This document shows positions 5,191 through 33,098 of a stretch of 39,218 nucleotides of DNA, piece after piece. Position 1 is the stretch's first letter. Every line of letters starts with the position of its first letter. The position numbers and the translations under genes were made by a program. The notes under the pieces were generated by a model that made no database searches, had not been told where the DNA came from, and saw nothing but the letters and a program-made list of their open reading frames with translations. This DNA comes from Thermoanaerobaculia bacterium (GTDB lineage: Bacteria; Acidobacteriota; Thermoanaerobaculia; Thermoanaerobaculales; Sulfomarinibacteraceae), in the NCBI GenBank assembly GCA_027067575.1, contig JAMOVQ010000101.1:1-39218 (forward strand), written 5' to 3'.

Positions 5191-5196
5191 TAGAAT
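5191..5196 (+). promoter_or_regulatory. Candidate -10 for the heparinase-like gene
   Basis: TAGAAT matches the -10 consensus at five of six positions and stands out in a G-rich stretch 31 bases before the ATG at 5228. The -35 region is poor. A GGAGGGGG ribosome site follows in the leader. Confidence 0.4.
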
Positions 5197-5227
5197 GACG
5201 GCCTTCCGGGAGGGAACTGGAGGGGGC

Positions 5228-8200
5228 ATGGCACGCTGCAGGGGACGTTGGCTCATCGTGCTCGTGACCGCGGCATTCCTGAGCGTCACACCGGCGGTCC
5301 GGGCCGTGGAGCAGACCGTAGTCTTGCAACTGGGGCTCGACGGCTACTCGGGGGTGGCCGACACCGACGTGGAGACCAACGACTGGGACACGCCGCCGCA
5401 GTACACGGTCAACTACGGCCAGAACGAGGTGCTGCACCTGGACCGTGACGGCGGCGCGAACGTCCTGATCCGGTTCGACCTCTCGGCGATCCCGTCGAAC
5501 GCCGCGGTCCGCTCAGCGACGCTCGAGTTGTACAACACGACGGACTCCTCCGGCCACGAGCGGCGGATCGAGGCGTTCCGGGTGCTCGCCGACTGGGACG
5601 AGGGCAACCAGGTGGCGTCGCCCATCGACGAACCGGGCAAGCACGGCGCAACCGGCGACGACGCCTTCGACTGGTGGACGGGGGAGGGGACCGACGTCCC
5701 GTGGCACGCCAGGGGCCTCGAGGCCGGGACCGACTACGACGCCGCGGTGCTCGATACCGCCGCCGTCACGGACGAAGGGTGGTCCACCTGGGACGTGACG
5801 GCCACGGTGCAGGCGTGGGTGCGGGGGAGCGCCCCCAACCACGGGCTCGTGCTGCGGGACGCCACGGGGTGGGTCGACGGCAACCCGGACTGGCGGGACT
5901 TCGTCTCGAGCCAGTCGGGGGACGCGGCACACCGGCCGGTGCTTCGGATCGTCTACGACCCCGACACGCCGATGGCCGACGCCGGGCCGGACCAGGAGGA
6001 GCTGCACTGGGACGGCGGGCCGATCACGCTGGACGGCTCGGGCAGCCACGACCACCCCGGAGGCGACGACGCGACCCTCCAGTACTCGTGGCGGGTCGTA
6101 CGGTCCGCGTTCGGCGCCTCGCTCGCCGGTGAGGTCTGTACCACGGCTGTCTGCACCGTCCAGCCGGACGCCGCGGGCGACTGGACGTTCGAGCTCGTGG
6201 TGACCAACGCCGTGGGGTCCTCGGCGGCGGACACGGTGCGCGTCCACCTGCTGTCGATCCCGGCGGGCCACCCGAGGCTCCTCCTGACGCCGGAGAAGCT
6301 GGCGGCGCTCAGGGCGCGCGCGGTCTCCACGAATCCGCGGTGGACGGCGCTCCTCGGCCAGGCGGACGCCTCCGACGGCGACAAGCTGGCCAAGGCGCTC
6401 GTCCGGCAGGTGCTCGACGAGCCGTCGTACTGCTCCGGGACGGACGGCGCCATCGCCATGGCGCTGGCCGAGATCCAGTCGGGCCAGACCTGGTCGACCC
6501 AGGCCGGGGACATCGCGCTGGTGTACGACTGGTGCCACGGCGAGCTGTCCCAGACCGACCGCGACACGATCCTGGACTGGTTCGCGACGGTCTCGAGCGA
6601 CGGCGACGACATCCCCGGCTGGGGCAACTACTGGCCGCGCTGGGGGTACTCCTTCGCGTTCATGGGGCTTGCCGCCCTCGGCGAGGCCCCGGACGCCCGC
6701 TCGTGGATGGACGAGTTCCGGGAGAACCGGTTCGGCGCGTACGACGTCGACAACCTCGACCGGATCGCCGCGGGCGGCGGCTGGCCCGAGGGGACCGTGT
6801 ACGACTGGATCGCCAACCTGTGGCGGGTCAAGGCCGCCGCGGGCTGGCGGACGGCCACGGGCGAGAACCTGTTCGAGGCGACGGCGTGGTTCCGGGAGCG
6901 GCTGGCGTACCTGCCGACGCTGTGGCTGCCCGGCACCGCCGACTCCTGGGGGCACCTCTACCACCCGTACATCGGCCACGGCGACGCCGAACGCAACCGC
7001 GGCCCCATGGCCGACTACGGCCGGATCATGGCGGAGATCCTGGTCGAGGCGTTCCCGGACGACCCCGACGCACGCGCGCTCCAGGGGTACCTTGCCGCGC
7101 CGCCCGTGGACCGGCCGGACGACTTCCTGGCCCACGAGGAGTTCCTGTTCTTCGACCCGGACCTTCAGGGAACCGCGCCGTCCGCCACGGGGCACCTGGC
7201 CGCCGGCACCGGTGAGGCGTTCTTCCGCAGCGGCTGGCCCGCCGGGGCCGGGGACGACTCCACGGACGTCACCGTGATCCAGTTCCACTGCGGCGACCGG
7301 TTCTCCTACCACCAGCACTACGAGCAGGGCGCCTTCACCCTGTTCTCCGGCGAGCCGCTCCTGCTGGACTCCGGCGTCTACTCGGGAGAGGGGCTGTCCA
7401 GCCACGACGTCAACTACTACGTGCGGACCGTCGCTCACAACACGCTGGTGGTGTCCAACCCGTCCGAGGACCTGACCGCGGCGCGGCCCGACGCCGTCTC
7501 CAACGACGGCGGCCAGCGGCCCCCGTACCCGGGCACCCGCGCCCCGACCTCCGTGGCGTACCTCGAGGAGCACGCGCCGATCTACGAGACCGGCGACCTC
7601 CTCGCCTGGGAGAACGGTGCGGACCTCGGCTACGTGCGCGGCGACGCCACCGCCGCGTACAACAGCACCCTCTGGGCCCAGGCGGACCACACCGACCTGC
7701 CCGGGAACGTGGCCAAGGTCTCCCGGTTCCATCGTGAGCTGGTGTACCTGCGCGCCGACGCAACCCGCCCCGGCGAGGCCGTAGTGCTGTACGACCGGGT
7801 CGGCGTGACCGACCCCTCGTTCAGCGGGGAGAACACGAAGCTCCTGTTCCACACGCTCCGCCAACCGGTGGTGGACGGGCCCTCGACGAACGTCTCCCCC
7901 GGGGAGATCCTGTTCACCGCGCCGTCCGAGGCCGTGGCCACGGCGCCCGGCGGGGCGCGGGTGACGCTGCGGTTCGTGCTGCCGGCGTCCCGCCACGTCC
8001 GGCGGGTCGGCGGGAGGGGCGAGAAGTCGTTCTGGGTGTTCGACGCCAACTACGACTGGCACTGGAGCTCGAACGAGCCCCAGCCGCGTCCCGTCAACGA
8101 CTTCGAGGACACGCCGTGGGGCGAGTGGCGGCTCGAGCTCGAGCCCGCCGACACCGGCCTCGACCACCGGTTCCTGACCGCGATCCTCCCCGACCGGACG

Positions 8201-8698
8201 GGGACGTCGGCGTCGCCTGCCACCACCGCCGTCTCCGGAACGGGCGTGGAGGGCGCCCTGCTCCGCTGGGCGGACGGTGCCGACGCGGTGCTGTTCGCCG
8301 CCACGGACGACGGCGCGCCACTGCCGGACACCGTGGAGTACACCGTGCCCTCGACGGTTCCCGTCCGCCACACTGTGGTGGACGCCCCGCCGGGCTCCCA
8401 CTGGAACCGGACCGTGACCAGCGGCGTGGGCACCCGGACGGTCACGCTGACCCGCGACGGCACCGGGGAGCTCACGGCCTCCGACGCCGGCGTCCTGCGG
8501 TTCACCACGCCCGGCCCCATCCGGTGCGACGTCGTCGTGGACGGCCTCTGCGACTGCCGGGATCTGGCGGGCGAGATCCGGGCGCTGACCGACACCACGT
8601 GGAACCCGGGTGGCGACCCCGACGTGGACGGCGACGGACACAGGACCGCAGAAGATCTGGCCACCATCGTGGACCACATCTACGGCGGTGGCCGGTGA
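5228..8698 (+). CDS. Secreted heparinase II/III-like protein with DNRLRE, PKD-like and dockerin domains
   Basis: The 1156-residue exported protein starts with a signal peptide (about residues 1-26, LIVLVTAAFLSVTPAVRA). A DNRLRE-type beta-sandwich follows at about 30-245 (VLIRFDLSAIP, ATLELYN, WDVTATVQAW), then a PKD/REJ-like domain at about 248-342. An alpha-rich region from about 346 and a C-terminal part with SYHQHYEQGAFTLFSGEPLLLDSG (near residue 693) match heparinase II/III-type polysaccharide lyases. The last 60 residues contain DPDVDGDGHRTAEDLATIV, a dockerin-like calcium repeat. The start at 5228 gives a proper signal peptide and follows GGAGGGGG; the track start at 5195 does not. Probable role: cleavage of uronic-acid-containing polysaccharide outside the cell. 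The substrate cannot be read from the sequence. Confidence 0.85.
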   Translation: MARCRGRWLIVLVTAAFLSVTPAVRAVEQTVVLQLGLDGYSGVADTDVETNDWDTPPQYTVNYGQNEVLHLDRDGGANVLIRFDLSAIPSNAAVRSATLELYNTTDSSGHERRIEAFRVLADWDEGNQVASPIDEPGKHGATGDDAFDWWTGEGTDVPWHARGLEAGTDYDAAVLDTAAVTDEGWSTWDVTATVQAWVRGSAPNHGLVLRDATGWVDGNPDWRDFVSSQSGDAAHRPVLRIVYDPDTPMADAGPDQEELHWDGGPITLDGSGSHDHPGGDDATLQYSWRVVRSAFGASLAGEVCTTAVCTVQPDAAGDWTFELVVTNAVGSSAADTVRVHLLSIPAGHPRLLLTPEKLAALRARAVSTNPRWTALLGQADASDGDKLAKALVRQVLDEPSYCSGTDGAIAMALAEIQSGQTWSTQAGDIALVYDWCHGELSQTDRDTILDWFATVSSDGDDIPGWGNYWPRWGYSFAFMGLAALGEAPDARSWMDEFRENRFGAYDVDNLDRIAAGGGWPEGTVYDWIANLWRVKAAAGWRTATGENLFEATAWFRERLAYLPTLWLPGTADSWGHLYHPYIGHGDAERNRGPMADYGRIMAEILVEAFPDDPDARALQGYLAAPPVDRPDDFLAHEEFLFFDPDLQGTAPSATGHLAAGTGEAFFRSGWPAGAGDDSTDVTVIQFHCGDRFSYHQHYEQGAFTLFSGEPLLLDSGVYSGEGLSSHDVNYYVRTVAHNTLVVSNPSEDLTAARPDAVSNDGGQRPPYPGTRAPTSVAYLEEHAPIYETGDLLAWENGADLGYVRGDATAAYNSTLWAQADHTDLPGNVAKVSRFHRELVYLRADATRPGEAVVLYDRVGVTDPSFSGENTKLLFHTLRQPVVDGPSTNVSPGEILFTAPSEAVATAPGGARVTLRFVLPASRHVRRVGGRGEKSFWVFDANYDWHWSSNEPQPRPVNDFEDTPWGEWRLELEPADTGLDHRFLTAILPDRTGTSASPATTAVSGTGVEGALLRWADGADAVLFAATDDGAPLPDTVEYTVPSTVPVRHTVVDAPPGSHWNRTVTSGVGTRTVTLTRDGTGELTASDAGVLRFTTPGPIRCDVVVDGLCDCRDLAGEIRALTDTTWNPGGDPDVDGDGHRTAEDLATIVDHIYGGGR

Positions 8699-9414: not shown

Positions 9415-10016
9415 GGCCGGCGCTTGGTGAGCTGGACCGGGGCCTCCTTCGGGAGGCTCCTGCCATACTCGGAATCGACGAGGTCGGACGGGGCGCACTG
9501 GCGGGTCCGGTTGTTGTGGCCGGCGCCGTCTTCGGCACCATCCCCGACACGCCCCTCATTCAGGACTCGAAGCAGCTGACACGGCTTCAGCGGGAACGGG
9601 CCGCCAGATGGGTACGGAAGAACGCATTGCGGTGGGGGATCGTCGAGATCGGTGTGGAGACCATCGACCGGACCGACATCCTGAGAGCCGTCAGAATGGC
9701 CATGACGGCCCTCGTTCGGGAGCTCGCATCGGAGGAGACCGCCGTGGTCTGTGATGCGGTTCGTCCGAGCGATCCTTCTCTCGACGTGCTCGCTCCGGCG
9801 AAGGCCGACGAATCCTGGTTCTGTGTCGCCGCGGCCTCGGTACTGGCGAAGGTCCACCGGGATGCTGTCCTCGCCGAACTGTCGGACCGGTGGCCGGGAT
9901 GGGGCTGGGAGACCAACGCGGGGTACGGGACCCGGCACCACCGGGCTGAGCTCGACCGGAGAGGACGGAGCATTCTTCATAGGACCACGTTCAGGTGGGG
10001 GCCTGTGTTACCATGA
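9411..10016 (+). CDS. rnhB: Ribonuclease HII
   Basis: The 201-residue protein carries the RNase HII signature [19 protein letters not shown] near residues 21-40, including the first catalytic Asp-Glu pair. A later Asp lies in AVVCDAVRP and the C-terminal part has [10 protein letters not shown]. The enzyme cuts the RNA strand of RNA-DNA hybrids and removes single ribonucleotides from DNA. The GTG start overlaps the rplS stop by four bases, and the rplS-rnhB order is common in bacteria. The length fits the family. Cytoplasmic. Confidence 0.97.
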
Positions 10017-10050
10017 CGTTTGCGGAGTTCCGCGGGGAGTTGTGGGCCTG

Positions 10051-12912
10051 ATGGCTGTCAAGCGCGACAAGATTCTGCGCGAGGCGGAGAAGCTGGTCCA
10101 GAAGGGCCGGATCGAGCAGGCTATCAAGGAGTACGAGAAGCTCCTCAAGGTCAACCCGAACGACCCCAACACGATCAACAGGATTGGCGACCTGTACGGA
10201 CGCATCGGGAAGGTCGACCGGGCCGTCGAGCTGTACGAACAGATCGCCGATCATTTCACTCGGGACGGCTTCATCACGAAGGCCATCGCGATCCTCAAGA
10301 AGATCAACAGGATCGCGCCGGACAGGCTGGACATCTTCGAGAAGCTGGCCGACCTCTACCAGCAACAGGGTCTCGTGGTCGAGGCGAAGAACCAGCTCCA
10401 GATGCTCGCCGACTGGTACACGCAAAACGGCGACACGGCAAACTCGATCAGGGTTCTCGAGCGGATCGTCCAGATCGACCCGAACAACCACATGGCACAG
10501 CTCCGGCTCGCGGATCTGCACATCACGCAGGGCGAGGCGGAGAAGGCCGTGGAAGTCTACGACCGGCTCGGCACCATGCTGCTCCAGCACGACAGGCTGG
10601 AAGAGGCGGAGCGTCTCTACCGGCACGTGCTCGAGGCGGATCCGCCGGCCGGCGAGGTCTTCGTCCCGATCTGCAGGGCGCTCATGGCAGCCGGGCGGGC
10701 CGAGGCCGCCCGGGAGTTCATCGAGGCCGCTGCGGCCCGCTCCGGTGACAACCCGGAGATCCAGGCCCTGAAGATCGAACTGGCCGTGATCTCGGGCGAG
10801 GGTCAGAAGGCTGTCAGGGCTGCCGAGACGGCGCTCGATACCTCGCCCGAGTCCACCGAGATTCAGCTGGCTGCTGGTCGGGCCTTTCTTGCCACGGGGG
10901 AGGGCCGGCGGGCGAAGGAGCTACTCCTTCCGGTCGTCGATCGGTGGCTCGAATCTGGGGCGGTCGAGGACGCGAGGGGACTGGTCAACGAGCTACTCAA
11001 GGCACAGCGGACCGACCGGGAGGTTCTGGAACGGGCCGTTCGTGCCTGGGAAGGTTCCGGGGACGGTGAGACGGCGCTCACGCTGAAGGCGGCGCTGGCG
11101 GATGCCTGTTTCCGCGGCGGTGATCGGAAGGCGGCCGAGGGGCTGTACCTCGAACTGACCCGTCAGGCGCCGGATCGGCCCATCTTCAGAGAGCGTCTGG
11201 CCCAGCTCCGGGGGGGAGAGGTGGAGCCGGCCCCCGCCGAGCCGCGGCCACTGGAAGTTCCTCCGCTGGAGGATCAGACCGCCGCCGAGATGGCGGTTCC
11301 CGGCGGGGACGCGAGGTTCGATCCCGAGGAGCGGTTTGCCGAGGCAAACGTGTTCGCGAAGTACGGTCTCATCGACAAGGCCATCGACCACCTTCGCGAG
11401 ATCCTGTCGGCGTTTCCCGAGATGCACGAGGCGAGGGAGAAGCTGGTCACGCTGCTCGTGGAGCGTGGAGACCTCGATGGCGCCCGGGACATCGCCGGTC
11501 CGCTGGAGGGCCACTACCGCCGCGAGGGGCTGTTGAAGGAGCTTCGGACGCTGCGGGAGGTCCTGGGGACGGCCGAGGCGAAGGGTGTGGCCGGAGCGGT
11601 GGCAGAGGAGGAAGAGGAGGAGATCCTCTACATCGAGTTCGATGAGGAGCCGGGAGCCGTGGAGCCCGGGGAGGAGCCCGCCTCGGCAGCAGCGGCTTCA
11701 GCAGAACCGTCCATGGAGCTGGAGTTCGAGATCGAGGAGGAACAGACGCCTGAGCTCGGCGGTTCCGAACCGGCGGCGGGAGGGGAACTCGAGGAACAGC
11801 ACCTCTCCGGGGAACCGTCCGCGGTGGAATCGGTTCCTTCGGCGAGACCGTCGCCGGAGACGATGGAGGGCGCAGGCCAGGACGCCGCGGCCGGAGAGCC
11901 GCCCCTGTCCGATCTCGACGGGCTCGAGGCGGTTCTGCGATCGGAGGCGGCAGCGAATCCGCCCGCTGCAGACCGGCGGTCCTCCACCTCGGCGGTGGAG
12001 GAGCTTCTCGGTTCCATCGGTCTCGACCTCGGTACGGCACGCAGGACAGAGCCGCAGACGCCGCCGCATGAGGAGTCTTCCGGTGCGGCCTCCGAACCTC
12101 CCGTCGAGGCCGGGCCGACACTGCACGAGCCGGATGAAGAGTTTGTCGAGATCACCGATGATGTGGCGGGTCCGGGGCTGGGTGACCTCCAGCAGGTGGA
12201 CTTCTTCATCTCGGAGGAGCTGTACGACGATGCGTTACGAATCCTCGAACGGCTGGAGGAGGAGTTCCCGGGTCATCAGGAGATCATGGAGCGCCGGGCC
12301 GTTCTCAAGGCTCGGGGTGTCCTGTTCGAGGATGTAACTCCCGTTGGCGGGGAGGCTGCCGAGGAGCTCTTTGCCGAGGAGGAGGAGTACATCGATCTCG
12401 CTGCGGAGCTCGAGGCAGAGCTCGATGCCGAGGAGGCGATGGTTGAGGAGGCCACCGGCCACGGGCAGGAGGGGGCCCTGCTCGAAGAGGTGTTCCGGGA
12501 GTTCCAGAAGGGAGTTGCCGAGCAGCTCTCGGAGGAGGATTCCGATACCCACTTCAACCTCGGTATCGCCTACAAGGAGATGGGCCTCCTTCCCGAGGCG
12601 ATCGGCGAGTTTCAGATCTCGGCCAAGAACCCCGCGTACGAGGTGGAGAGCCTCTCGATGATCGGGCTGTGCTTCGTGGAGCAGGGACTGCTCTCCGAGG
12701 CGGCGGAGTGGTACCGGAGGGCGCTCGAATCCCCGCAGATCAGTGACGACGCCCGGCTGGGTGTCCTCTACGACCTTGGCAGCGCGCTGGAGCAGGCGGG
12801 CGAGCTCGAGGAGGCGGCGGAGGCGTTCAATACGATTGTTTCACGATCGCCCGCTTACCGCGATGCCGCGGGTCGCCTGCGCCGCCTGGAGGAGCTCCGG
12901 CAGGCGAACTAG
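10051..12912 (+). CDS. Large cytoplasmic TPR protein with acidic linker
   Basis: The 953-residue protein begins MAVKRDKILREAEKLVQKG and has no signal peptide. TPR helices fill about residues 1-385 and resume near 420-500. A long acidic, low-complexity linker rich in Glu, Pro, Ala and Ser covers about 505-710. The C-terminus has further TPRs (VDFFISEELYDDALRILERL and SDTHFNLGIAYKEMGLLPEA). This layout matches TPR proteins common in deltaproteobacteria and Acidobacteriota, without a defined function. The track start at 9751 lies inside rnhB and is rejected. ATG 10051 follows GGGGAG, 34 bases after rnhB, so it is probably in the rplS operon. It is likely a scaffold for protein assembly. Confidence 0.85.
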   Translation: MAVKRDKILREAEKLVQKGRIEQAIKEYEKLLKVNPNDPNTINRIGDLYGRIGKVDRAVELYEQIADHFTRDGFITKAIAILKKINRIAPDRLDIFEKLADLYQQQGLVVEAKNQLQMLADWYTQNGDTANSIRVLERIVQIDPNNHMAQLRLADLHITQGEAEKAVEVYDRLGTMLLQHDRLEEAERLYRHVLEADPPAGEVFVPICRALMAAGRAEAAREFIEAAAARSGDNPEIQALKIELAVISGEGQKAVRAAETALDTSPESTEIQLAAGRAFLATGEGRRAKELLLPVVDRWLESGAVEDARGLVNELLKAQRTDREVLERAVRAWEGSGDGETALTLKAALADACFRGGDRKAAEGLYLELTRQAPDRPIFRERLAQLRGGEVEPAPAEPRPLEVPPLEDQTAAEMAVPGGDARFDPEERFAEANVFAKYGLIDKAIDHLREILSAFPEMHEAREKLVTLLVERGDLDGARDIAGPLEGHYRREGLLKELRTLREVLGTAEAKGVAGAVAEEEEEEILYIEFDEEPGAVEPGEEPASAAAASAEPSMELEFEIEEEQTPELGGSEPAAGGELEEQHLSGEPSAVESVPSARPSPETMEGAGQDAAAGEPPLSDLDGLEAVLRSEAAANPPAADRRSSTSAVEELLGSIGLDLGTARRTEPQTPPHEESSGAASEPPVEAGPTLHEPDEEFVEITDDVAGPGLGDLQQVDFFISEELYDDALRILERLEEEFPGHQEIMERRAVLKARGVLFEDVTPVGGEAAEELFAEEEEYIDLAAELEAELDAEEAMVEEATGHGQEGALLEEVFREFQKGVAEQLSEEDSDTHFNLGIAYKEMGLLPEAIGEFQISAKNPAYEVESLSMIGLCFVEQGLLSEAAEWYRRALESPQISDDARLGVLYDLGSALEQAGELEEAAEAFNTIVSRSPAYRDAAGRLRRLEELRQAN

Positions 12913-13017: not shown

Positions 13018-15888
13018 TCACCTCCGCAGAACGGCGAGGCCGCTCCCGAGCAGGATGAGGACGAAGAGCAGGATCCCCCCGCCGGAGAGCGCCGGAATCG
13101 GAGGCGCCTTGCCGGAGGCGGTCCCGGCACCCTCGTCCGGGGATGGCTCCGTCTCGCCGGGTGGGCCGGTACGGCCGGGGACTCCTCTCTCGAGGAGTGC
13201 GTCCGGCGGTTCGAGCCACGGCCAGGCCAAGGTGTTCGCCGCGTCCCTGGCCGTCCGGTTCCCGACGACGAACGCCAGGTCGGCGGCGTTGGTGCGGCAG
13301 TCCCAGCTGGCGTCCGGTGGGTCCCCGGGCGGCGTCGGGTCGGTGAAGAGCCAGGCCAGCACCGCCAGGTCGTCCCCGGCGGTCACCTCGCCGTCCCCGG
13401 TCACGTCGCCCCGCACGGCGATGCCGTCGCCGAAGCCGGCGGCCACGGTCGTGTCGGCGTCGAGGGCCAGGACACAGGGTTCCGCCCCCTCGCACCCCCC
13501 GCCGGACCAGCCGCCGAACGCCGACCCGGGATCGGGATCGGCGAGGAGGACGACCGTCTCGCCCCTGCCGAAGACCGCCGAACACTCGCCGGCGCAGGCG
13601 ATGCCGCCGGGGCTCGAGAGGATCTTTCCCGAACCGGGGCCGCAGGCCCTGACCGTCAGGGTCGCCCGGTCCTCGAGGTCGGGTTCGAACAGGGCGGTGA
13701 CCGTCCGGTCGGCGTCCAGGAACAGCTCGAGCGGTCCGGTCCCTGCGACGGCGCCGGCCAGGTTCCACGCCCCGAGCCGCCAGCCGGGCGAGGGGGATGC
13801 CTCGAGACGGACCGCCGTTCCCGGCTCGAACTCCGCCGTGCAGTCGGGCGGGCACGCGATCCCGGTGGGGGAGGAGGTGACGGTCCCGGCCCCCTCGGCG
13901 CCGACCGTCAGGAGGACCCGTTCGGGCGGGGCGGGACCGAACTCGGCGGTCACCGTGACCGGCGCCGTCACGGTCAGGGTGCAGGGGGCCGTCCCCGTGC
14001 AGCCTCCCCCGGACCATCCCGCGAACACCGAGCCGGGCTCCGGGCTCGCGGTCAGGGTGAGCTCCTCGCCGTTGGTCACGGGCACGGAACAGGTGCCGCC
14101 GCAGACCAGGCCGGCGGCGGACGCCACGACGGTCCCGCGTCCGGCCCCGGTCCGGTTCACGGTCACGGTGTGCTCCGCCGGGATCTCCTCGAAGACGGCG
14201 ACGAGGGACGGCGGGCCGGTCGGATTGCTGTTCATCGGGCTGGGGAACGCCAGGAACCCGGACGACGTGCGGATCGTGACCGGGTTCCGGTAGTCGAGCG
14301 CGGCCCACTCGTACGATCCCAGGTTGAGGGTCTCCCACCGCCAGATCCACTGGCGGAAACGCCACCCTGCCATGGGCGTGGCCGTGAAGTCCGCGGGAAA
14401 GGCGCTGGCGGCGAGGGACACGGTGCATTCGCCGGTACAGTCCACTCCCGGGGCCGTGGAGGTGATCCGGCCCTGACCCTGGACGAGAAGGTGTGCATCG
14501 ACGGGGTCCGGTTCCGGGTCCGAGGTCTCGGCCCCGGAGGGGTTGATCTGGGCCAGCACCGACGGGTTGTACGGGTTCTGGTCCATCACGTACAGGGGAC
14601 TCATGTGCTTGAACCCTCCGTTCGGTGTGAACCGGATGCGGACGGTACACCGTTCACCAGCCGGAAGGGTCCTGTTGGAGCAGTTCTCCTCCTCCCGGGT
14701 GATGGTCGGGTCGTTGGAGGAGGGTTCCCCGAGGAACTCGAGGGGGCCGATGCCGATGGCGCCGTGGCCGACGTTGATGATCTCCACCTCGATCTCGCTC
14801 CAGCTCCCCACGGGTGTCAGGGGGAACTCGTTGATGAACGTGTCGTCGAACTGCCCGGGAATCCATGCGGTCCGGGGCACGACCACGAGCTCGGGGTCGC
14901 CGTTCAGGGCCGGTCCCCCGGGGTCCACCACCACGCCGTTGGCCGTCAGGTCGGCGTCCCCCTCGAGACCGTCGCAGAAGGAGAGGGCGATCCGCATGGA
15001 GCCGTCCGGATCGGCGTGGAACCGTGCGCCGCGGCCGTTCTGGAAGTCGAACCGCCACCAGTGGTCGGACGGATCCTGCGGTGTGGGACCGTACATCCAG
15101 TACGAGACCAGCTCGGGGTCACCGGGCATCCACAGGTTGGCCGTGAAGCAGCTCCCCGGGACCATTCCCGAGAACGTCATCTCGAAGAAACCCAGGGGAA
15201 AGCGATCGACGGGAGCGTCGTCCGGGGACGGGTTCGGCACCGCGGCGGCGTGGGCGAGGGTGATTCCCTCCGGGGCCTCCAGGGTCACGTACCGTCCGTC
15301 CAGCGAGGGGAACGAGGCCACCCGGGCCTGGATCACGTCGGGGATCCCGTCGCCGTTCCCATCCCACCCCGGATCGTCCCCGTCGGGTCCCATCTCCAGG
15401 GCGTCGTCCACCCCGTCACCGTCGGTCTCCCCTCCATCCCGGAGGAAATGGGCCCGGACCACCGTGTCCCAGTGGACGGTCACCGTGGCCGTCGCGCCGG
15501 TCCCGGCCGCCGCCCCCGACCACCCCGCGAACCGCCATCCCGGCGCGGGCACGGCCGAGAGCGTGGCCGTGAACCCCTGGGTTCCCGTCTCGACACAGTC
15601 GGCGGGGCAGTCGATCCCGGGGCCCGTGACCGTGCCGCCGTCCCGCGGGACGACGACGACCCGCAGGGAGATTCCGCCGGTCTCCCGCCGGGCGCGGACC
15701 ATGCCGCCGGCGGTGTTCCAGCCGTACGATTCACGGGTCGCTCCGGACTCCACCCGTACGAGCCGTCCCGCGGCGTCGTACCGGTAGGTCAGGGTTTCCT
15801 GAGCTCGGGTGACGGCCGGAGCGAGGAGCAGTGCGACGGCCGCCGCCGCAACGAGACCGGGTCCGTAACGGAAGCCGTGTCGTTCCAT
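13018..15888 (-). CDS. Exported repeat protein: YD repeat, choice-of-anchor U-like domain, InlB-like repeats, dockerin, IPTL-CTERM-like tail
   Basis: The 956-residue protein has a signal peptide (about residues 1-30, ending TRAQ), then one lone YD/RHS repeat (LTYRYDAAGRLVRVESG). A divergent InlB B-type repeat follows (about 75-150), then a calcium-type Asp-rich segment (DGDGVDDALE) and a choice-of-anchor U-like domain (SCFTANLWMP... DLTANGVVVDPGG). Next come an ASH/choice-of-anchor D-like region, four more InlB-like repeats with paired Cys residues (GIDCPADC-type motifs), a dockerin-like segment (GDVTGDGEVTAGDDLAVL) and a C-terminal IPALS-hydrophobic helix-RR tail resembling IPTL-CTERM sorting signals. 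The ATG at 15888 follows GAGGAGGAACC; the track start at 16038 lacks a signal peptide. Likely a surface protein processed by an exosortase-like system, which is not seen here. Confidence 0.75.
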   Translation of the reverse strand: MERHGFRYGPGLVAAAAVALLLAPAVTRAQETLTYRYDAAGRLVRVESGATRESYGWNTAGGMVRARRETGGISLRVVVVPRDGGTVTGPGIDCPADCVETGTQGFTATLSAVPAPGWRFAGWSGAAAGTGATATVTVHWDTVVRAHFLRDGGETDGDGVDDALEMGPDGDDPGWDGNGDGIPDVIQARVASFPSLDGRYVTLEAPEGITLAHAAAVPNPSPDDAPVDRFPLGFFEMTFSGMVPGSCFTANLWMPGDPELVSYWMYGPTPQDPSDHWWRFDFQNGRGARFHADPDGSMRIALSFCDGLEGDADLTANGVVVDPGGPALNGDPELVVVPRTAWIPGQFDDTFINEFPLTPVGSWSEIEVEIINVGHGAIGIGPLEFLGEPSSNDPTITREEENCSNRTLPAGERCTVRIRFTPNGGFKHMSPLYVMDQNPYNPSVLAQINPSGAETSDPEPDPVDAHLLVQGQGRITSTAPGVDCTGECTVSLAASAFPADFTATPMAGWRFRQWIWRWETLNLGSYEWAALDYRNPVTIRTSSGFLAFPSPMNSNPTGPPSLVAVFEEIPAEHTVTVNRTGAGRGTVVASAAGLVCGGTCSVPVTNGEELTLTASPEPGSVFAGWSGGGCTGTAPCTLTVTAPVTVTAEFGPAPPERVLLTVGAEGAGTVTSSPTGIACPPDCTAEFEPGTAVRLEASPSPGWRLGAWNLAGAVAGTGPLELFLDADRTVTALFEPDLEDRATLTVRACGPGSGKILSSPGGIACAGECSAVFGRGETVVLLADPDPGSAFGGWSGGGCEGAEPCVLALDADTTVAAGFGDGIAVRGDVTGDGEVTAGDDLAVLAWLFTDPTPPGDPPDASWDCRTNAADLAFVVGNRTARDAANTLAWPWLEPPDALLERGVPGRTGPPGETEPSPDEGAGTASGKAPPIPALSGGGILLFVLILLGSGLAVLRR

Positions 15889-15948
15889 CGTCGGTTCCTC
15901 CTCACGGTGCGGTGAAGACGCAGGTCCGGAAAGAACCCCCGGGACCCC

Positions 15949-15979
15949 GGCCCACGGACTCGTCCTCCGTCCGTGGGCC
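15949..15979. other. Eleven-bp perfect hairpin between the RHS and anchor-domain genes
   Basis: GGCCCACGGAC (15949-15959) and GTCCGTGGGCC (15969-15979) form a perfect 11-bp stem with a 9-base loop. The stem extends with a single mismatch. On the coding (minus) strand the loop reads GGAGGACGA. It lies in the 146-base gap between the RHS gene and the next gene on the same strand, so it may end, slow or protect the RHS transcript. Confidence 0.5.
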
Positions 15980-16034
15980 CGGACGGGGCCCCGGGGGGCG
16001 CGGCCGACCACCTGACCGCCCGCCTGCCGTCGCA

Positions 16035-19000
16035 TCACCGTGCCTCACGCATCTGACGCTGCCACTTGGCGTAGGTGCTCCAGGAGATCCCGTTGGCCTG
16101 GAGCAGATCGCGGATGAACCGCGCCTCGTCGGCCGGGTCGTATGGGTCGGCGGTGGGGGACATCAGGTGGACGAGGATCTCGTCCAGCGTGATCGCCCGG
16201 CCTTCCGAGTCCCACCACACGTGCGCATGACCGATCGCCCGTCCCACGAGCCACCCCGCTCCGCCGGCCGCCAGCGGGCCGAGCACCAGCGGTCCCACGG
16301 ATGCCTCGCCCAGGGAGACGACGAACGTCTCCGCCAGCGTCTCCTCCAGGTAGACCTTGAACACCATGTAGTTGACCGTCAGGTCCTTCCCCGCGCCGCG
16401 GAGCCAGGCGCCCGCTCCCCGGACGGTTCCCGAGGAGAGTGCCCTCTGGAGGAGCTGCTTCGCGGACTGGACGATGCCGGGGTTCCGGCCGAGGATGCGT
16501 TCCCCCTGGGCGATCATCCGCTCCGGCGGCCCCAACGCCATCTCGAACTCGGCCGCCACCTGCTCCGTCACCGAGATTCCCTCGTTCTTCAGGACGTCCA
16601 CCGACCACTCCATCGGGACGTGGTACGCCTTGATCCCCTCCGTCAGCCCCGAGCCCAGGGTGGCCTCCTCCATCAGGTGCACCGGCGCGCCCATGGACTC
16701 TGCGGCGCTGGCCTCGATCCAGCCGTGGAGCGCCCCCACGTCGCGCACGCCCATCTGTGCCCCCTCGGTCACCCACGTCTTGACGAACTGGTAGAGGGAC
16801 GGATCGGTGAGGGGGCCGGCCTCGAGGCCCGTCGGATCGGCGGCGTCGATCGGGTCACCGTGGGCCCAGGAGTACAGGTTGCCCGCCAGCCTGATCCCGG
16901 CCGGGTCCTCCGAGAGGAACTGCCGCAGCCGCGGGTCGTACAGGCGCGCCGCGGTCACGGCGAGTCCGGTGGAATCGGTGAAGACACCCCACGTGCCGGC
17001 GAACCCGAACGGCTGATCCGTCAGGGAGCCGGTGGCTCCGGTCCGGTTCCCGAAGGCGTCCCACGACGCGGTCTGCACCACCGTGCCGGAGCCGTCGGTG
17101 ACGGCCGCCACGTTGCCGCGCGCATCGCCGAGGTAGACCCGGACCTCCCCAGCGGGGCCGACGGAGTACAGCAGGATCGACCCGGCCCACACGTGCCGCC
17201 ACAGGACGGCACCCGTGCCGTCCATCGTCGCCACCGGGTGGCCGTCGAGGCGGAGGAACCGTCGCGTGACGCCCTCCGAGGCGATCTCCACGAGATCCCC
17301 GGCGGGGTCGTACCGGTAGTCCGCCCGGACCCCGTCGCGGGTGACGGTGACGGGGCGGGAGAGGACGTCCCATGTCACCTGGAGGCCGGGCGCCGAGACC
17401 AGGTTCCCCGAGGGATCGTGGGCGACGGGACCAGCCACCCCCTCGGCGGCCACCGATTCGAGCCGGTCGGCGGTCCCGCGTTCGAAGGCTGTGGATTCCT
17501 CGTCGGGTCCGGGGACGGCCCCGCCGGTGCGCGTCTCGGAGACCACGCGACCCAGGGCGTCCCGCACCAGGGTGATCTCGAGGATCGTGGCGCCCCCCGG
17601 CGCGGTGTGCCGGACCGAGACGAGCCGCCCGGCGGGATCGCGGCCGTAGGCCGTCCGTACGCCGCCGGGGAGGTCGACCGACGACACCCTGCCGGCGGTG
17701 TCGTAGTGGAAGACCGTGGTGTTCCCCGCCCAGTCGACGATCCGGTCGAGCCGCCCGGCCGTGTCGTACCGGTAATCCGCCGTCACGCCGCCCGGGTACT
17801 CCACGGCGTCCACACGTCCACCGGCGGTCCAGCTCCGCCGGACGGTGTCGCCCCAGATTCCCGTGTGGGCCACGGGGCGGCCGAGGAGATCGTACCGGTC
17901 GGTCACGGTCTCCGAGCCGTCCGTCACGGAGACGGTCTCGCCGGAGCCGTCGAACGTCCGTGTCCGGCCGAGCACCGTTCCGCCGGGAAGGGTCGTGGAG
18001 ACCAGTTCGTCGTCGGCGTTCCATGCATACTGGATCTCCCTGCCGTCGGGCAGGATCGTCCGGGTCCGCCGTCCGCCCTCGTCGTACACGTACCGTTCGG
18101 CGAGCCGGTCCGGTCCGGTCTCGCGGACGAGCCGTCCGCCGGGATCGTACCGCCAGGTCCAGACGGAGCCGAGCGGGTCCCGGAGGGAGATCAGGCGTCC
18201 GCGGGTGTCCCAGTCCAGGACCGTCTGGGCCCCTCCGGGAGACTCGATGGAGCGTGGGAGACCGTCCTGGCCCAGGACCTGGACGGTCTCCCGGCCCAGG
18301 GCGTCGGTGTGCACCACCCGGAGCCCGTCCTCCGAGGCGCGGAACGTCTCCCGGTTACCGAGGGGATCGGTGATACCGGTCAGAACACCGTTGGCGTCCC
18401 GCTCGAACGTCCACCGTCCGCCGTCCGGTTCGACGATGGCCGTCACCCGGCCCGCGGGATCCCTCTCGTACCGTCTCCGGCCGCCGCCGGGCAGGACGAC
18501 CTCGGACAGGGCGCCCCGCCCGTCGTAGACGCGGCTGAACGTGACGCCGTCCGGATCGGTGACCGAGACGAGGTTGCCGTCGTCGTCGTAGGTGTAACGG
18601 GTCTCTCCCCCGAGGGCGTCCCGCACCGTCACGAGCTGGCCCGCGTCGTCCCGGATCCAGGTGGTGACCGCACCCGTGGGCTCGAAGGTCCGGGTCGCCA
18701 CGTTCCCCTCGGCGTCGTGGGTCCACAGGATCCGCCGGCCCTCGGGGGTCCGCAGCCACTCCAGGCTGCCCGCGAGGTCCCACGAGAACGTGCTGGTCCC
18801 GAGCGAGCCCGGCCGCTGGATCGAGGCGAGGCGCCCGGCGGCGTCGTAGGTGAACGACACCGTCGCGCCGGTCTGGAGCTGGATCGACTGGAGCTGGCCC
18901 GAGCCGTTCCAGGTGAACCAGCGCCACTCGTAGTCGGCGCGGTCCGAGGTTCTCTGGACCCGGCCGTCGGTGTCGTAGTCGAGGATCAGGTCCTGACCTC

Positions 19001-21146
19001 CGGCCGAGGTCAGCCGGGTGAGCCGCCCTGCGGCGTCGTGCTCCAGGCGGTCGAAGCCGCCCGAGGGGCGGTGCAGCTCCGCCGGTCTGCCCGAACCGTC
19101 CCGGACCAGGGAAGCCGTGGCCCCGTCGGGGCCGGTTGCGGAGAGGATCCTGCCGTCGGCGTCGTAGTGCAGTGCGAGGGTCCCGCCGGCCTTGTCGGTC
19201 ACGCTCGCCAGCCGTCCCTCCTGCCAGGCGAACCGGGCCGCATGACCGAGGCCGTCCACCGCCTTGACCAGCCGGCCGGCGGCGTTGTACACGCGCCGGA
19301 CCGCCCGGCCGGAGGGCGGCGTGATCGTCACCTCGAGGCCGCCCCCAGGGAGAGCCGTTCTCGAGAACGTCGTGGTCTTGCCCAGGGCGTCGGTCTCGGA
19401 GAGGACCTTCCCCTCAGCGTCATACACGACGGTCAGCACCGTCTTGCCGCGGCGGTCCGTCTCCGTCAGGAGGCGGTGGGAGGTGTCGTACGTGAACTGC
19501 CACGAGTGGCCCAGGGGATCGGTCACCGTGACGAGGTCGCCGGAACCGTCGTACGCCAGGGTCACCAGATCGTTCGCCGTGATGGCGGCGCACCGGACGG
19601 ACGCGAGGCGCCCCGCCGCGTCGTGTGTGAAGTCGAACTGGCGTCCGAGCGGGTCCGTGACGTGGTCCACACCGGAGGCGCCCCGGGTCACCGTCATCTC
19701 CGCCCCGGTCCCGTCGCCCATCGCCGTCAGGGCGCCCGAGGCGTCGAACTCCAGGATCACCCCGCCGGCCAGGCGGGCCCGGACGCCCCCGCCGGCGGCG
19801 TCCTCGAGCACCGCCAGGGTGGCCCCGCCCGCGGGTTGCCACGGGTCCCCGGCCTGGGCCCGGACGAACCGCTGGACGTGCCCGTCGGGGAAGGAGATCG
19901 AGGCCTCCGTCGCCGAGAGGGTCGCCCGCATCGCCCACGAGTGGGTCCACCCGTGGCCCACGGGGCCGTCCTTCGAGGCCGCGAGGGAGTTGTACGCCAG
20001 GGTGAACCGGAACCCCAGCACCGGGGTGGCCGGGTAGGCGCAGACGGTCCTCCGGAGGTGGAGGTTACCCGTGTATGCGTTGACCGGGTCGTCCTCGTCG
20101 TCCGGCTGGTCGCCCAGGCGGTGGTCGTCGTCGTCCGGCACGTCGTCCGGCGCCAGGACGAACGCCAGGTACGCCGAGGTTTCCTGGCCGTCCGAGACCT
20201 CCACGTGCATCGAACCCTGCCGGTACCCCGGCTGATCCGCCGTCACGTCGTAGCTTCCCGGGGCCGGAACCCGGACGAGGAACACCCCTTCGGGCGCCCC
20301 GGCGCGGCCGGCCCGGCTCCCCGACCCGTCGGCGGCCACGACCGTCGCGCCGACCAGCGGTTCTCCGGTGTCGGCGGCGTGGACGGTCCCCACCAGGGCC
20401 GCGCACGGGGAGACCGTGTACGACCCGGAGGCCGAGGCGTGGGCGTCCCCGCTGCGGCCGGTCACCGTCACCGTGTACGTCCCCGGCTCGCGCCAGCGGT
20501 GGTGGACCGTCCGGCCCGAGGCGGTGGAACCGTCGCCGAAATCCCATGTGACGGTGTCGGCACAGCCGGTGAAGGTGAACCCGGCCTCCTCGTCGTCGCA
20601 GATCCCGGCCGAGGAGGGCCCCTCGAAGCTCGCCGTGGCGTACCCGGTGATCCGGAACGTCTGGGGCTCGGTCAGGAACGGCCCCTCGTGCTGGCCGCCC
20701 CACACGGAGAAGCGAAGCGAACCTTCGCCGCACCCCGTGACGAGGAACTCGAAGGTCGGGCCGCCGTACCACGTGGAGGAGAACTCGTGTCCTTCCGACC
20801 AGACGCAGGGCAGGCAGTACGGGCCGAGGCAGGAGACGACCTGGTGGTCGTATTCCATGATCTTCCCGTCCACGAAGCACGGGTGGTCCGACCAGCCGTA
20901 GTGGTCGAACCAGGCCCGCAGGAGCTGGAGGCCCTCCGCGATGGGTGTCACCCCCTCCGAGGTGACGGCGGATGTGTGAACGAGGATCGTGTCCCCGTGG
21001 CGGACCGATCCGGGCACGGTGAACGTGAACCCGGCCGGGTTCGGTTCCGAGGCGGGAGCGAGTTGCGGCAACGCGAGGCACAGGGCCACGGCCAGGTACC
21101 GGCCCGCCAATCGTACGATCGCGTCGTGCAACGGGATCTGGGCCAT
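16035..21146 (-). CDS. Giant exported RHS/YD-repeat protein with PKD domain and novel C-terminus
   Basis: The 1703-residue protein has a signal peptide (VRLAGRYLAVALCLALPQLAPASE) and a Cys-rich N-terminal domain (about 40-170). A PKD-like domain follows (about 180-247, TWDFGDGSTASGRTVHHRW), then a carboxypeptidase-regulatory-like fold (about 250-332) and an Asp-rich linker. NAYTGNLHL opens the RHS shell, whose many YD repeats (about 360-1440) end in the RHS core motif YDPRLRQFLSEDPAG...DPTGL. The last 262 residues follow this core, where polymorphic toxins carry their effector, but I recognise no toxin family. The ATG at 21146 follows GGAGG and is preceded by a hairpin; the track start at 21428 is rejected. 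RHS shells encapsulate their C-termini and are exported. A toxin role here is inference, and no immunity gene is obvious. Confidence 0.85.
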   Translation of the reverse strand: MAQIPLHDAIVRLAGRYLAVALCLALPQLAPASEPNPAGFTFTVPGSVRHGDTILVHTSAVTSEGVTPIAEGLQLLRAWFDHYGWSDHPCFVDGKIMEYDHQVVSCLGPYCLPCVWSEGHEFSSTWYGGPTFEFLVTGCGEGSLRFSVWGGQHEGPFLTEPQTFRITGYATASFEGPSSAGICDDEEAGFTFTGCADTVTWDFGDGSTASGRTVHHRWREPGTYTVTVTGRSGDAHASASGSYTVSPCAALVGTVHAADTGEPLVGATVVAADGSGSRAGRAGAPEGVFLVRVPAPGSYDVTADQPGYRQGSMHVEVSDGQETSAYLAFVLAPDDVPDDDDHRLGDQPDDEDDPVNAYTGNLHLRRTVCAYPATPVLGFRFTLAYNSLAASKDGPVGHGWTHSWAMRATLSATEASISFPDGHVQRFVRAQAGDPWQPAGGATLAVLEDAAGGGVRARLAGGVILEFDASGALTAMGDGTGAEMTVTRGASGVDHVTDPLGRQFDFTHDAAGRLASVRCAAITANDLVTLAYDGSGDLVTVTDPLGHSWQFTYDTSHRLLTETDRRGKTVLTVVYDAEGKVLSETDALGKTTTFSRTALPGGGLEVTITPPSGRAVRRVYNAAGRLVKAVDGLGHAARFAWQEGRLASVTDKAGGTLALHYDADGRILSATGPDGATASLVRDGSGRPAELHRPSGGFDRLEHDAAGRLTRLTSAGGQDLILDYDTDGRVQRTSDRADYEWRWFTWNGSGQLQSIQLQTGATVSFTYDAAGRLASIQRPGSLGTSTFSWDLAGSLEWLRTPEGRRILWTHDAEGNVATRTFEPTGAVTTWIRDDAGQLVTVRDALGGETRYTYDDDGNLVSVTDPDGVTFSRVYDGRGALSEVVLPGGGRRRYERDPAGRVTAIVEPDGGRWTFERDANGVLTGITDPLGNRETFRASEDGLRVVHTDALGRETVQVLGQDGLPRSIESPGGAQTVLDWDTRGRLISLRDPLGSVWTWRYDPGGRLVRETGPDRLAERYVYDEGGRRTRTILPDGREIQYAWNADDELVSTTLPGGTVLGRTRTFDGSGETVSVTDGSETVTDRYDLLGRPVAHTGIWGDTVRRSWTAGGRVDAVEYPGGVTADYRYDTAGRLDRIVDWAGNTTVFHYDTAGRVSSVDLPGGVRTAYGRDPAGRLVSVRHTAPGGATILEITLVRDALGRVVSETRTGGAVPGPDEESTAFERGTADRLESVAAEGVAGPVAHDPSGNLVSAPGLQVTWDVLSRPVTVTRDGVRADYRYDPAGDLVEIASEGVTRRFLRLDGHPVATMDGTGAVLWRHVWAGSILLYSVGPAGEVRVYLGDARGNVAAVTDGSGTVVQTASWDAFGNRTGATGSLTDQPFGFAGTWGVFTDSTGLAVTAARLYDPRLRQFLSEDPAGIRLAGNLYSWAHGDPIDAADPTGLEAGPLTDPSLYQFVKTWVTEGAQMGVRDVGALHGWIEASAAESMGAPVHLMEEATLGSGLTEGIKAYHVPMEWSVDVLKNEGISVTEQVAAEFEMALGPPERMIAQGERILGRNPGIVQSAKQLLQRALSSGTVRGAGAWLRGAGKDLTVNYMVFKVYLEETLAETFVVSLGEASVGPLVLGPLAAGGAGWLVGRAIGHAHVWWDSEGRAITLDEILVHLMSPTADPYDPADEARFIRDLLQANGISWSTYAKWQRQMREAR
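16827..20069 (-). repeat. YD/RHS repeat array inside the RHS gene
   Basis: This coding stretch holds a long series of degenerate repeats of the type YDxxGRLxxVxxPxG (examples: YDAAGRLASIQRPGS, YDTAGRVSSVDLPGG, YDPGGRLVRETGPDR). They form the spiral beta shell of RHS proteins. The repeats are diverged at the DNA level, so this is a protein-repeat region, not a recent tandem amplification. Confidence 0.8.
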
Positions 21147-21158
21147 CGCAACCTCCAC

Positions 21159-21179
21159 GGACCCCTCTCCACGGGGTCC
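21159..21179 (-). promoter_or_regulatory. Leader hairpin next to the RHS ribosome site
   Basis: GGACCCC and GGGGTCC form a perfect 7-bp stem with a 7-base loop ending two bases before the GGAGG of the RHS gene. A competing pairing, CCACGG (21155-21160) with CCGTGG (21183-21188), would occlude part of the same region. Two alternative folds next to the ribosome site suggest possible control of translation. Confidence 0.4.
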
Positions 21180-21188
21180 CGACCGTGG

Positions 21189-21492
21189 CGGGAGCAAACG
21201 GTGTTCCAACCGGACCGTCGTCCGGAATGCGCGAGGAACGGGGGCGACTGGTCCGGCCGTCTTCCGGAGCCCGTACCGCAGCGTACGATCTTCGTACCTC
21301 CCGGTACGGGTTTTCTCGTCCCCGGCGGGACCGGGGGCACTCGAGGCGGCGTTCAGGGCGCCGCGGGTGGGAGACCGATCGACGGCCCCCGGCTGCCGGG
21401 CTCCCGTTCGCTCAACGGCCCGGGGCACCGGCCGGCCACAGCGGTTCCCGCTCCTCGTCTCGGATTCCGGCGGACGGTCCTCGAGTCCCGGC
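21189..21492. other. Gene-free structured interval upstream of the RHS gene
   Basis: No gene is supported between the RHS leader and the M50 stop at 21493. The interval contains a nested palindrome at 21270-21310 followed on the plus strand by TTTTCT, and a second hairpin CCCCGG-CGGGA-CCGGGG at 21320-21336. No convincing sigma70 promoter for the RHS gene was found on the minus strand. Confidence 0.5.
21270..21316 (+). terminator. Nested hairpin with T-tract, terminator-like on the plus strand
   Basis: Outer arms CCCGTACC (21270-21277) and GGTACGGG (21303-21310) enclose an inner perfect hairpin GTACGA-TCT-TCGTAC (21283-21297). TTTTCT follows directly on the plus strand. This is the form of an intrinsic terminator, yet all known genes nearby run on the minus strand. 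It either ends an unannotated plus-strand RNA or serves another structural role. Confidence 0.45.
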
Positions 21493-29767: not shown

Positions 29768-29775
29768 CACAGAGA

Positions 29776-29806
29776 ATGATACCTCCCCCCGCCACCGGGG
29801 GGAGGT
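29776..29806 (-). promoter_or_regulatory. Perfect 10-bp hairpin and -10-like box between the subtilase and PKD genes
   Basis: ACCTCCCCCC (29781-29790) and GGGGGGAGGT (29797-29806) form a perfect 10-bp stem with a 6-base loop. On the minus strand the 3' arm reads GGGGGGAGGT and thus contains the only Shine-Dalgarno-like run upstream of the PKD gene. It overlaps TATCAT, a -10-like box. It may end the subtilase transcript, hide the ribosome site, or both. Confidence 0.5.
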
Positions 29807-29835
29807 GAGGACGGTCACGCTGGCGTCCGGTGACG

Positions 29836-32800: not shown

Positions 32801-33066
32801 ACATCGAGTCCCGTATCCAGAGCGCGTTCCACGGCTCGAAGCCGGGTCTTGGGGACCGGAACGCCGCGGCCGCCGAGAGCCGTCCGCGAGTCCGGGGCGG
32901 CGTGAAGCCTGACGATGACCGGGATCGAGGAGTCGCCCGCCTCGATCCTCGCGAGGACGTCAGGCGCCAGTCTGGCCCGCTGGGCGGGCGTCACGGCTGT
33001 GGTTGCCGCCGCGAGAACAGTTGTCACGGAAAGAAGAACGAACGTTACGAGTCTCGTCTTGGTCAC
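29836..33066 (-). CDS. S8 subtilisin-like serine protease with P-domain and duplicated C-terminal modules
   Basis: The 1076-residue exported protein has a signal peptide, an inhibitor-I9-like propeptide (about 35-140) and a complete S8 triad: Asp170 (VAVIDTGVDYSHP), His209 (DCDTHGTAAASVA) and Ser408 (GGTSGAAPYITG), with oxyanion Asn318 (SSGND). A P-homoB domain follows at about 470-603. Two copies of an unnamed module of about 220 residues follow (about 614-840 and 845-1076), each starting with (F/L)VP(V/I) and containing NWVTDLRVFN-type and YGQ(Y/F)I motifs. The GTG start at 33066 has GGAGGG seven bases upstream; the track start at 33876 is a shadow extension. Likely secreted. The substrate is unknown. 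Confidence 0.92.
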   Translation of the reverse strand: MTKTRLVTFVLLSVTTVLAAATTAVTPAQRARLAPDVLARIEAGDSSIPVIVRLHAAPDSRTALGGRGVPVPKTRLRAVERALDTGLDVVRDATANAGLEIERTFRLYPAFAARGPAEAILALAGLDVVESIELDHVRHAHTAQGIPMIHADVLHDMGIDGTGTAVAVIDTGVDYSHPSLGGGPIPNDKVVYGKDTADNDDDPMDCDTHGTAAASVAAGLPHQWSSVRKFAGGVAPGAAILAYKASRNSSCGSFSDSAVVAAIEDAILHRDEFNVVAINMSLGGGFYSGPCDNRNRAYANAIKDATDAGIAVVVSSGNDGKKNQISAPACISNSISVGSVYDKDIGFPGYSYCANASCSEILCTDANVPATTPTCYANSDPYLDILAPSEKLTAARSGGTTTDFGGTSGAAPYITGSIALIAQAIPGIDATAARMLLEMTGAPIVDLGNGETHPLADLAAAVESSDVALANRFRVAIPNGTGSPAISTAEVTQNGFVDTVRVMVKIAHPKPTDLVVTLISPDGTRVKLHDHQDGTTPPDSIDATFGSNGIFGTYPDILTPAENLDGFKDLEASGTWTLEVLDEQSASQSGVDPVLIGWAIQVSTKEAPQPPSGSSLFVPVGVHAPGSSGTFWVTDVRLFNPSFGDTRNLKVYLIPKDTDGTVEFQQTNVTVPPQTIVSLPDILANRFGVDQLQGNLIFETDDPHILATSRTYNTGGGSGTYGQYIDMVRAADALGAGDAAAYLVQLARNGAFRTNIGFSEVTGHEATVRVELFDGVTGSGLGSPKQYTIRPFSNTQVNRIFEDLGAGSSPNAYARITVTSGQGRVVAYASVVDNATGDAIYIPARQPGTGAVLVPIAAKKSGSAGTNWVTDLRVFNGSSSPAELTLEYRPENGTGGSPRTITRTVEGGRVLALDDVLGEAFGQADATGSIRIVPDGDAALIVTSRTYNQVAGGTYGQFIGGVRNGFGRGESAVVFHLDKNAHYRTNVGIAEVSGSAVVVRYALKDSSGATLGTGSVELGPYEVRQINDIFSAVGAPATDNARVDFFLDGGDGTFTAYASVIDHDSGDAIAIPARAY

Positions 33067-33098
33067 GTGAGTCCCTCCACAGGTTGCACGTCCGACGC

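What the first reader, a model, noticed from the sequence alone, without database searches (positions are those of the whole stretch)
16038..16823. Unrecognised 262-residue C-terminus on a giant RHS protein
After the RHS core motif (DPTGL) the protein continues for 262 residues with no toxin family I recognise. The tail contains GWIEASAAESMGAP, a hydrophobic stretch VGPLVLGPLAAGGAGWLVG, then HVWWDSEGRAITLDEI and a C-terminal YAKWQRQMREAR. RHS shells typically enclose and release a variable C-terminal effector. The next gene downstream is a large anchor-domain protein, not a small immunity gene, so this could be a non-toxic adhesin tip, an orphan toxin, or a new effector class. The membrane-like stretch would be odd for a nuclease and could mean membrane insertion.
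Basis: partly seen in the sequence, partly recalled or inferred. Interest (0 to 1): 0.65.

Follow-up and report, generated by a model that had tools for sequence, protein, structure and literature searches.

The report
Orphan two-module tail on RHS protein
A very large exported bacterial protein ends in a 262-residue tail of a family matched in no library searched here; the tail turns out to be two exchangeable modules that always occur beside the same second surface gene, which suggests a lineage-specific, contact-type surface device rather than an ordinary toxin with its antidote.

Summary
The minus-strand RHS gene (start ATG 21146, stop 16035) ends in 262 residues after DPTGL that match nothing in Pfam, NCBIfam, PHROGs, PADLOC or PDB. 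The tail is not a one-off. The genome has a second copy of a two-gene cassette (RHS plus the next gene; core 61%, tail 39%, partner 61% identical), and three related genomes of the order carry four more tails. All six cassettes pair the RHS gene with the same kind of partner: signal peptide, YD repeats, choice-of-anchor domain, and a C-terminal IP-hydrophobic-RR end resembling an exosortase-H sorting signal. No immunity-like gene was found between or beside them.

Leave-one-out profiles split the tail in two. The N module (residues ~8-90) is in four of six and absent in a genus whose core is 73% identical to a carrier's; the break falls at the DPxG cleavage motif. The C module (~114-262) is clear in five of six. 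In the closest pair the tail is more constrained than the core (dN/dS 0.16 against 0.36).

A classic toxin/immunity pair is not supported, and the "membrane-like stretch" is no more hydrophobic than shuffled sequence. I favour a surface-displayed, self-cleaving RHS with modular cargo; an adhesive tip is a close rival.

The parts
16035..21146 (-). RHS protein, 1703 aa: signal peptide, PKD, carboxypeptidase-regulatory-like domain, DUF6531, YD-repeat shell, Rhs core, 262-aa tail
   Evidence: GGAGG before ATG 21146; paralogue start agrees
16824..17060 (-). Rhs-associated core with the two DPxG motifs (EDPAGI...DPTGL), the aspartyl self-cleavage signature
   Evidence: resembles the two-DPLGL motif described in PMC8636562
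16038..16823 (-). 262-aa tail, 28.3 kDa, a family not matched in any library searched
16554..16802 (-). N module of the tail (about residues 8-90), shared by 4 of 6 cassettes and missing in G029/G026
   Evidence: leave-one-out profiles; alignment
16038..16484 (-). C module of the tail (about residues 114-262), clear in 5 of 6 cassettes, includes GxxxGxxxG and the conserved D...M.P region after it
   Evidence: for the glycine pattern
16227..16325 (-). Glycine-rich hydrophobic stretch of the C module (around VVSLGEASVGPLVLGPLAAGGAGWLVGRAIGHA)
   Evidence: KD19 1.52, shuffle p 0.44; GxxxGxxxG at tail residues 190-198 kept in 5 of 6
13018..15888 (-). Partner protein, 956 aa: signal peptide, YD-type repeat, InlB-type repeats, choice-of-anchor U domain, dockerin-like stretch, C-terminal IP-hydrophobic-RR end
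   Evidence: same partner in 6 of 6 cassettes
15889..16034 (-). 146-nt gap between the two genes with a strong hairpin (about -88 kcal/mol for 149 nt, z -1.95); gap is 143 nt in the paralogue and 10-12 nt in the other four cassettes

Best explanation
This is one of two copies of a lineage-restricted, two-gene surface cassette. Gene 1 is a Sec-exported RHS protein whose shell ends in the usual two-DPxG self-cleavage signature and carries a two-module tail of about 28 kDa. Gene 2 is an exported protein with a YD repeat at its mature N-terminus and an exosortase-type anchor at its C-terminus. Shown: the genes, their co-occurrence in six of six cassettes, the two modules and their separate inheritance, purifying selection on the tail in the one pair that could be tested, and the absence of an immunity-like gene. 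Inferred: the RHS shell is displayed at the cell surface, perhaps docked by the YD repeats of the anchored partner; the tail is cut from the shell at DPTGL and delivered on contact; the C module is the constant functional part, possibly membrane-interacting through its GxxxGxxxG stretch; and the N module is an exchangeable part just behind the cleavage site (entry, plug or second activity).
For: Tail homologues sit only on RHS shells of this cassette: 2 in the own genome, 2 in G021, 1 each in G029 and G026; none elsewhere in 149 class or 396 phylum genomes (the single weak hit is an unrelated protein). The partner is present in all six, 10-12 or 143-146 nt downstream. Leave-one-out profiles: N module E 4e-12, 4e-7, 2e-4 and 3e-3 in four members but 11 in G029/G026; C module E 8e-18 to 1e-42 for four members left out in turn (G026, near-identical to training member G029, 4.5e-61) but 1.1 in G021b, with shuffles and other Rhs tails as decoys. 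G021a against G029: identity 76-88% per 25-column block up to DPxG, then 8-24% for about 125 columns, then 44% rising to 60-96%. Both Asp of the DPxG pair are kept in 6 of 6. The distance from the first Asp to the cut Leu (27) equals Tse5 D1141 to L1168; D1141A reduces Tse5 killing and C-terminal cleavage is reported essential for toxicity (PMC10684867). dN/dS of the tail is 0.155 against 0.362 for the core. The own genome has an exosortase H above the curated cut-off (117 against 86 bits).
Against: No activity is shown. No fold: AlphaFold with 6 sequences gave mean pLDDT 50 (residues 1-100 mostly 57-90, the rest mostly below 50), and Foldseek against PDB found nothing (best E 0.87). At 28.3 kDa (about 34,000 cubic angstroms) the folded tail would about fill or exceed the ~32,000-35,000 cubic angstrom cavities reported for Rhs shells of similar length with ~15 kDa cargo (PMC10684867), so full encapsulation is doubtful. 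The hydrophobic stretch is not exceptional in this protein. No self-protection gene has been identified. The partner's C-terminal end matches no curated sorting-signal model; exosortase anchoring is by resemblance.
Confidence: 0.45

Rival explanations
1. The RHS protein is a non-toxic adhesin or matrix protein (teneurin-like in role): the tail is a structural or adhesive tip, and the partner tethers it to the surface.
For: Tail kept and under strong purifying selection in the testable pair; no immunity-like gene in any cassette; adhesive-type domains (PKD, Big_1, carboxypeptidase-regulatory-like, choice-of-anchor, InlB repeats) in both genes; tail is about twice the usual Rhs cargo mass.
Against: The self-cleavage signature is kept in 6 of 6, which a permanent tip would not need; N module exchanged exactly at the shell boundary, as for cargo.
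Confidence: 0.33
2. It is a standard Rhs polymorphic toxin, with the partner (or an unlinked gene) acting as immunity protein.
For: Sec-exported RHS with Asp self-cleavage motif; other Rhs proteins in the family's genomes carry many unrelated tails; in bacterial teneurin-like proteins the gene immediately downstream is the immunity gene (PMC13018210).
Against: The partner is 481-966 aa, exported and anchored-type, and does not track the tail's divergence: partner 61% against tail 39% identity in the paralogue pair. Whole-tail replacement is not seen among the six; no known toxin domain.
Confidence: 0.15
3. The tail is a decayed or fast-drifting remnant without function.
For: Low identity of the inner part between cores that are 73% identical.
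Against: Full-length open frames in all six; dN/dS 0.155; C module recognisable at 38% core identity.
Confidence: 0.04

Closest known systems
Rhs polymorphic toxins with self-cleaving shell (Photorhabdus Rhs1, Pseudomonas Tse5)
   Same: YD-repeat shell of similar length, two DPxG motifs before the C-terminal region, shell sequence matched to solved Rhs chains including Tse5 and Tre23
   Different: Signal peptide instead of T6SS parts, 28-kDa tail instead of ~15 kDa, no adjacent small immunity gene, tail family conserved in the lineage, constant large partner gene
Bacterial teneurin-like proteins (PMC13018210)
   Same: Exported YD-shell proteins thought to be displayed at the surface, C-terminal domain after the shell, extra gene directly downstream
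   Different: No NHL domain found; Teneurin YD-shell model only partial and below cut-off; tail not hypervariable in the same way; downstream gene is a large anchored-type protein
CdiA-CT bipartite toxins (from general knowledge, not tested)
   Same: C-terminal region made of two modules that reassort independently
   Different: Different scaffold; here the inner module is exchanged and the outermost one is conserved; no immunity gene
Glycine-zipper effectors and pore formers (Tde1, CdzC/D, Tse5)
   Same: GxxxG pattern or membrane activity in an exported effector (PMC10240207, PMC5380434, PMC10684867)
   Different: No sequence similarity found by the tools; hydrophobicity of this stretch is not above shuffles

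Membership tests
RHS/YD-repeat protein | Tandem YD repeats and Rhs-associated core | tested here: met
   PF05593 E 5e-104 with 14 stretches; TIGR03696 53.8 bits over cut-off 32.5
Rhs polymorphic toxin | Two DPxG motifs with aspartates for tail release | tested here: met
   Present in 6 of 6 by sequence; cleavage itself not tested
Rhs polymorphic toxin | Conserved shell with abruptly different C-terminal region in relatives | tested here: inconclusive
   Inner half swapped at DPxG in G021a/G029; outer half conserved; sister paralogue keeps the whole tail
Rhs polymorphic toxin | Small immunity gene directly downstream | tested here: not met
   Large exported partner in all six, 10-146 nt downstream; no shared ORF in the 3 kb after it where sequence is held
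Rhs polymorphic toxin | Recognisable toxin domain or toxic activity | tested here: inconclusive
   No family or fold match; activity not testable here
Bacterial teneurin-like protein | FN-plug, NHL and YD-shell together | tested here: not met
   No NHL hit; TEN_YD-shell 23 bits against cut-off 50
T6SS-exported Rhs effector | PAAR/VgrG-type N-terminus | tested here: not met
   Signal peptide and PKD/carboxypeptidase-regulatory N-terminus, no PAAR hit
Exosortase-H substrate (partner gene) | IPTL-type C-terminal signal recognised by its model | tested here: inconclusive
   IP-hydrophobic-RR ends in all six but no sorting-signal model hit; exosortase H present in the genome

The most novel reading that the evidence does not exclude
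A new kind of surface RHS device: shell and anchor are two separate proteins joined through YD repeats on the anchored partner, and the shell carries a combinatorial two-module tail in which the inner module behind the self-cleavage site is exchanged while the outer module is fixed, so that the delivered part can be changed without losing a constant (perhaps membrane-acting) end, and without a linked immunity gene.
Probability: 0.2. Interest if true: 0.75.

Novelty: new variant of a known kind. Interest (0 to 1): 0.48.

Why it matters
RHS proteins are usually read as toxin plus immunity pairs. This cassette keeps its tail, reshuffles it in two pieces, lacks a linked antidote and is tied to a second, separately anchored surface protein that has its own YD repeats. 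If the inferences hold, it would be a split, surface-anchored RHS system with testable rules for how cargo is exchanged, and a candidate intermediate in role between bacterial toxin shells and teneurin-type contact receptors.

Tried and rejected
1) Single-sequence scan of genome contigs and a two-row profile scan found no relatives; the useful route was the partner gene, which led to G021 and G029. 2) The weak tail hit in G194 was checked and rejected: a 371-residue protein that is not an RHS, sharing only a short hydrophobic stretch. 3) AlphaFold with 2 then 6 sequences was too weak for a fold assignment, and Foldseek hits were noise. 4) HTH_23 (E 0.09) and DUF4585 (0.12), each in one member, were judged chance. 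5) A membrane helix in the tail: not supported over shuffles. 6) A conserved gene downstream of the partner that could be an immunity gene: none shared (the G029 contig ends there, G026 has only 2 kb). 7) Plasmid and phage origin: no tblastn match. 9) Partner coordinates for two loci were first given out of frame and redone.

Full report
What is there. The minus-strand frame 16035-21428 encodes an RHS protein; the best start is ATG 21146 (GGAGG upstream, signal peptide after it), giving 1703 residues. Domains are PKD, a carboxypeptidase-regulatory-like domain, DUF6531, 14 scored RHS repeat stretches and the Rhs-associated core. After DPTGL come exactly 262 residues. These match no model in Pfam or NCBIfam, nothing in PHROGs or PADLOC, and no PDB chain at a meaningful E-value; profiles of two and six members did not change that.

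A duplicated cassette. A whole-genome search of the host assembly (3.08 Mb, 191 contigs) found one further tail at 40% identity. Its locus repeats the whole arrangement: an RHS gene of 1706 residues followed by a homologue of the window's downstream gene. Identities between the two copies are core 61%, tail 39% (N half 32%, C half 46%), partner 61%. So the tail diverges faster than the shell here, but it is the same tail, with no sharp replacement.

Relatives. Direct tail searches in 20 family and 37 order genomes failed. Searching with the partner gene found two copies in G021 and one in G029, all matching from the signal peptide and YD repeat of the partner onwards. Each lies directly behind an RHS gene with a 37-38% identical core. 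A profile of five tails then found a sixth in G026 and nothing else in 149 class and 396 phylum genomes. All six tails have the partner next to them, with 10-12 nt between genes in four and 143-146 nt in two. By contrast, the other Rhs cores inspected in the family's genomes carry unrelated tails, and none of these ranked as a relative when used as decoys.

The partner. In all six it has an export signal, one or two YD-type repeats at the start of the mature protein (PF05593 35.9 bits over cut-off 22 in G021a; only 16 bits in the window copy), an InlB-type repeat, choice-of-anchor domains, and a C-terminal IP-hydrophobic stretch-RR end. The host genome has exosortase H (TIGR04177, 117 bits against a cut-off of 86). 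That the partner is its substrate is inferred from resemblance; no sorting-signal model matched.

Two modules. Pairwise alignment of G021a and G029, whose cores are 73% identical, keeps 19-22 identities per 25 columns up to DPxG, then drops to 2-6 per 25 for about 125 columns, then 11, 18, 22, 15, 15, 24 per 25. Leave-one-out profiles with shuffled and unrelated-tail decoys show an N module (about residues 8-90) in the window protein, its paralogue, G021a and G021b, and not in G029/G026; and a C module (about 114-262) in all but G021b, where only a register-consistent trace remains. Because G021b and the window share the N module at 38% core identity while G029 lacks it at 73% core identity to a carrier, simple drift is a poor explanation and replacement or loss is likely. 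Six sequences from four genomes are few, and the exact history is open.

Selection. G029 and G026 are close enough for dN/dS: core 0.362, tail 0.155 (both halves alike), partner 0.293. In that pair the tail is the most constrained part. This is not the signature of a diversifying toxin tip, though it is one pair only.

The hydrophobic stretch. In the window its best 19-residue mean is 1.52, reached by 44% of shuffles; the paralogue and the G029/G026 members reach 1.86-1.99 (p about 0.05-0.06). A GxxxGxxxG pattern is kept in five of six. Membrane action therefore remains a possibility by analogy with glycine-zipper effectors (PMC10240207; PMC5380434) and the pore-forming Rhs toxin Tse5 (PMC10684867), not a result.

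Mechanism. The pair of DPxG motifs that in characterised Rhs proteins goes with release of the C-terminal fragment (PMC8636562; PMC10684867) is kept in all six, with Gln instead of the final Leu in G029/G026. I therefore favour a released, delivered tail over a fixed tip, at modest odds. The tail is 28.3 kDa, roughly twice the cargo of shells of similar length, so it may not be wholly enclosed (inference). Structure prediction did not settle the question.

Comparison and verdict. It is an RHS protein. It is not a bacterial teneurin-like protein by the tests here (no NHL, YD-shell model below cut-off), and it fails the immunity-gene feature of Rhs polymorphic toxins (compare PMC13018210), so it is not filed as one, although it may well work like one. 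It is best placed as a new variant of the RHS surface kind, restricted to one bacterial order in what could be searched.

Noticed in passing
window 15889-16034 (minus): Strong long hairpin in the gap between RHS and partner (149 nt folds at -88 kcal/mol, z -1.95); the paralogue's gap is of the same length and shares a GGGTCCCGGGGG...TTTC end. Could be a processing or attenuation site.
   Followed up: partly
L038 (about 5303-5614) and L037 (about 5886-6198): Two other RHS genes of the same genome are 85% identical in DNA over the last ~310 bases of the core; one continues into a 213-residue tail, the other ends mid-core as AYALGSR-stop.
   Followed up: partly
L037 and L039: The genome carries further RHS proteins with unrelated unrecognised tails (213 and 256 residues).
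   Followed up: no
L079 8239-8982: The G021b tail keeps the N module but the C module is barely recognisable; both G021 cassettes share a closer N module (Z 16) than their 40% identical cores would suggest, as if exchanged within the genome.
   Followed up: partly
window 9751-12912 (+): 1053-residue TPR-repeat protein converging on the partner gene.
   Followed up: no
window 5195-8698 (+): Large protein with CBM96-like, heparinase II/III C-terminal-like and PKD-like domains.
   Followed up: no
window 28157-29818 (-): Another PKD-repeat protein (553 aa).
   Followed up: no
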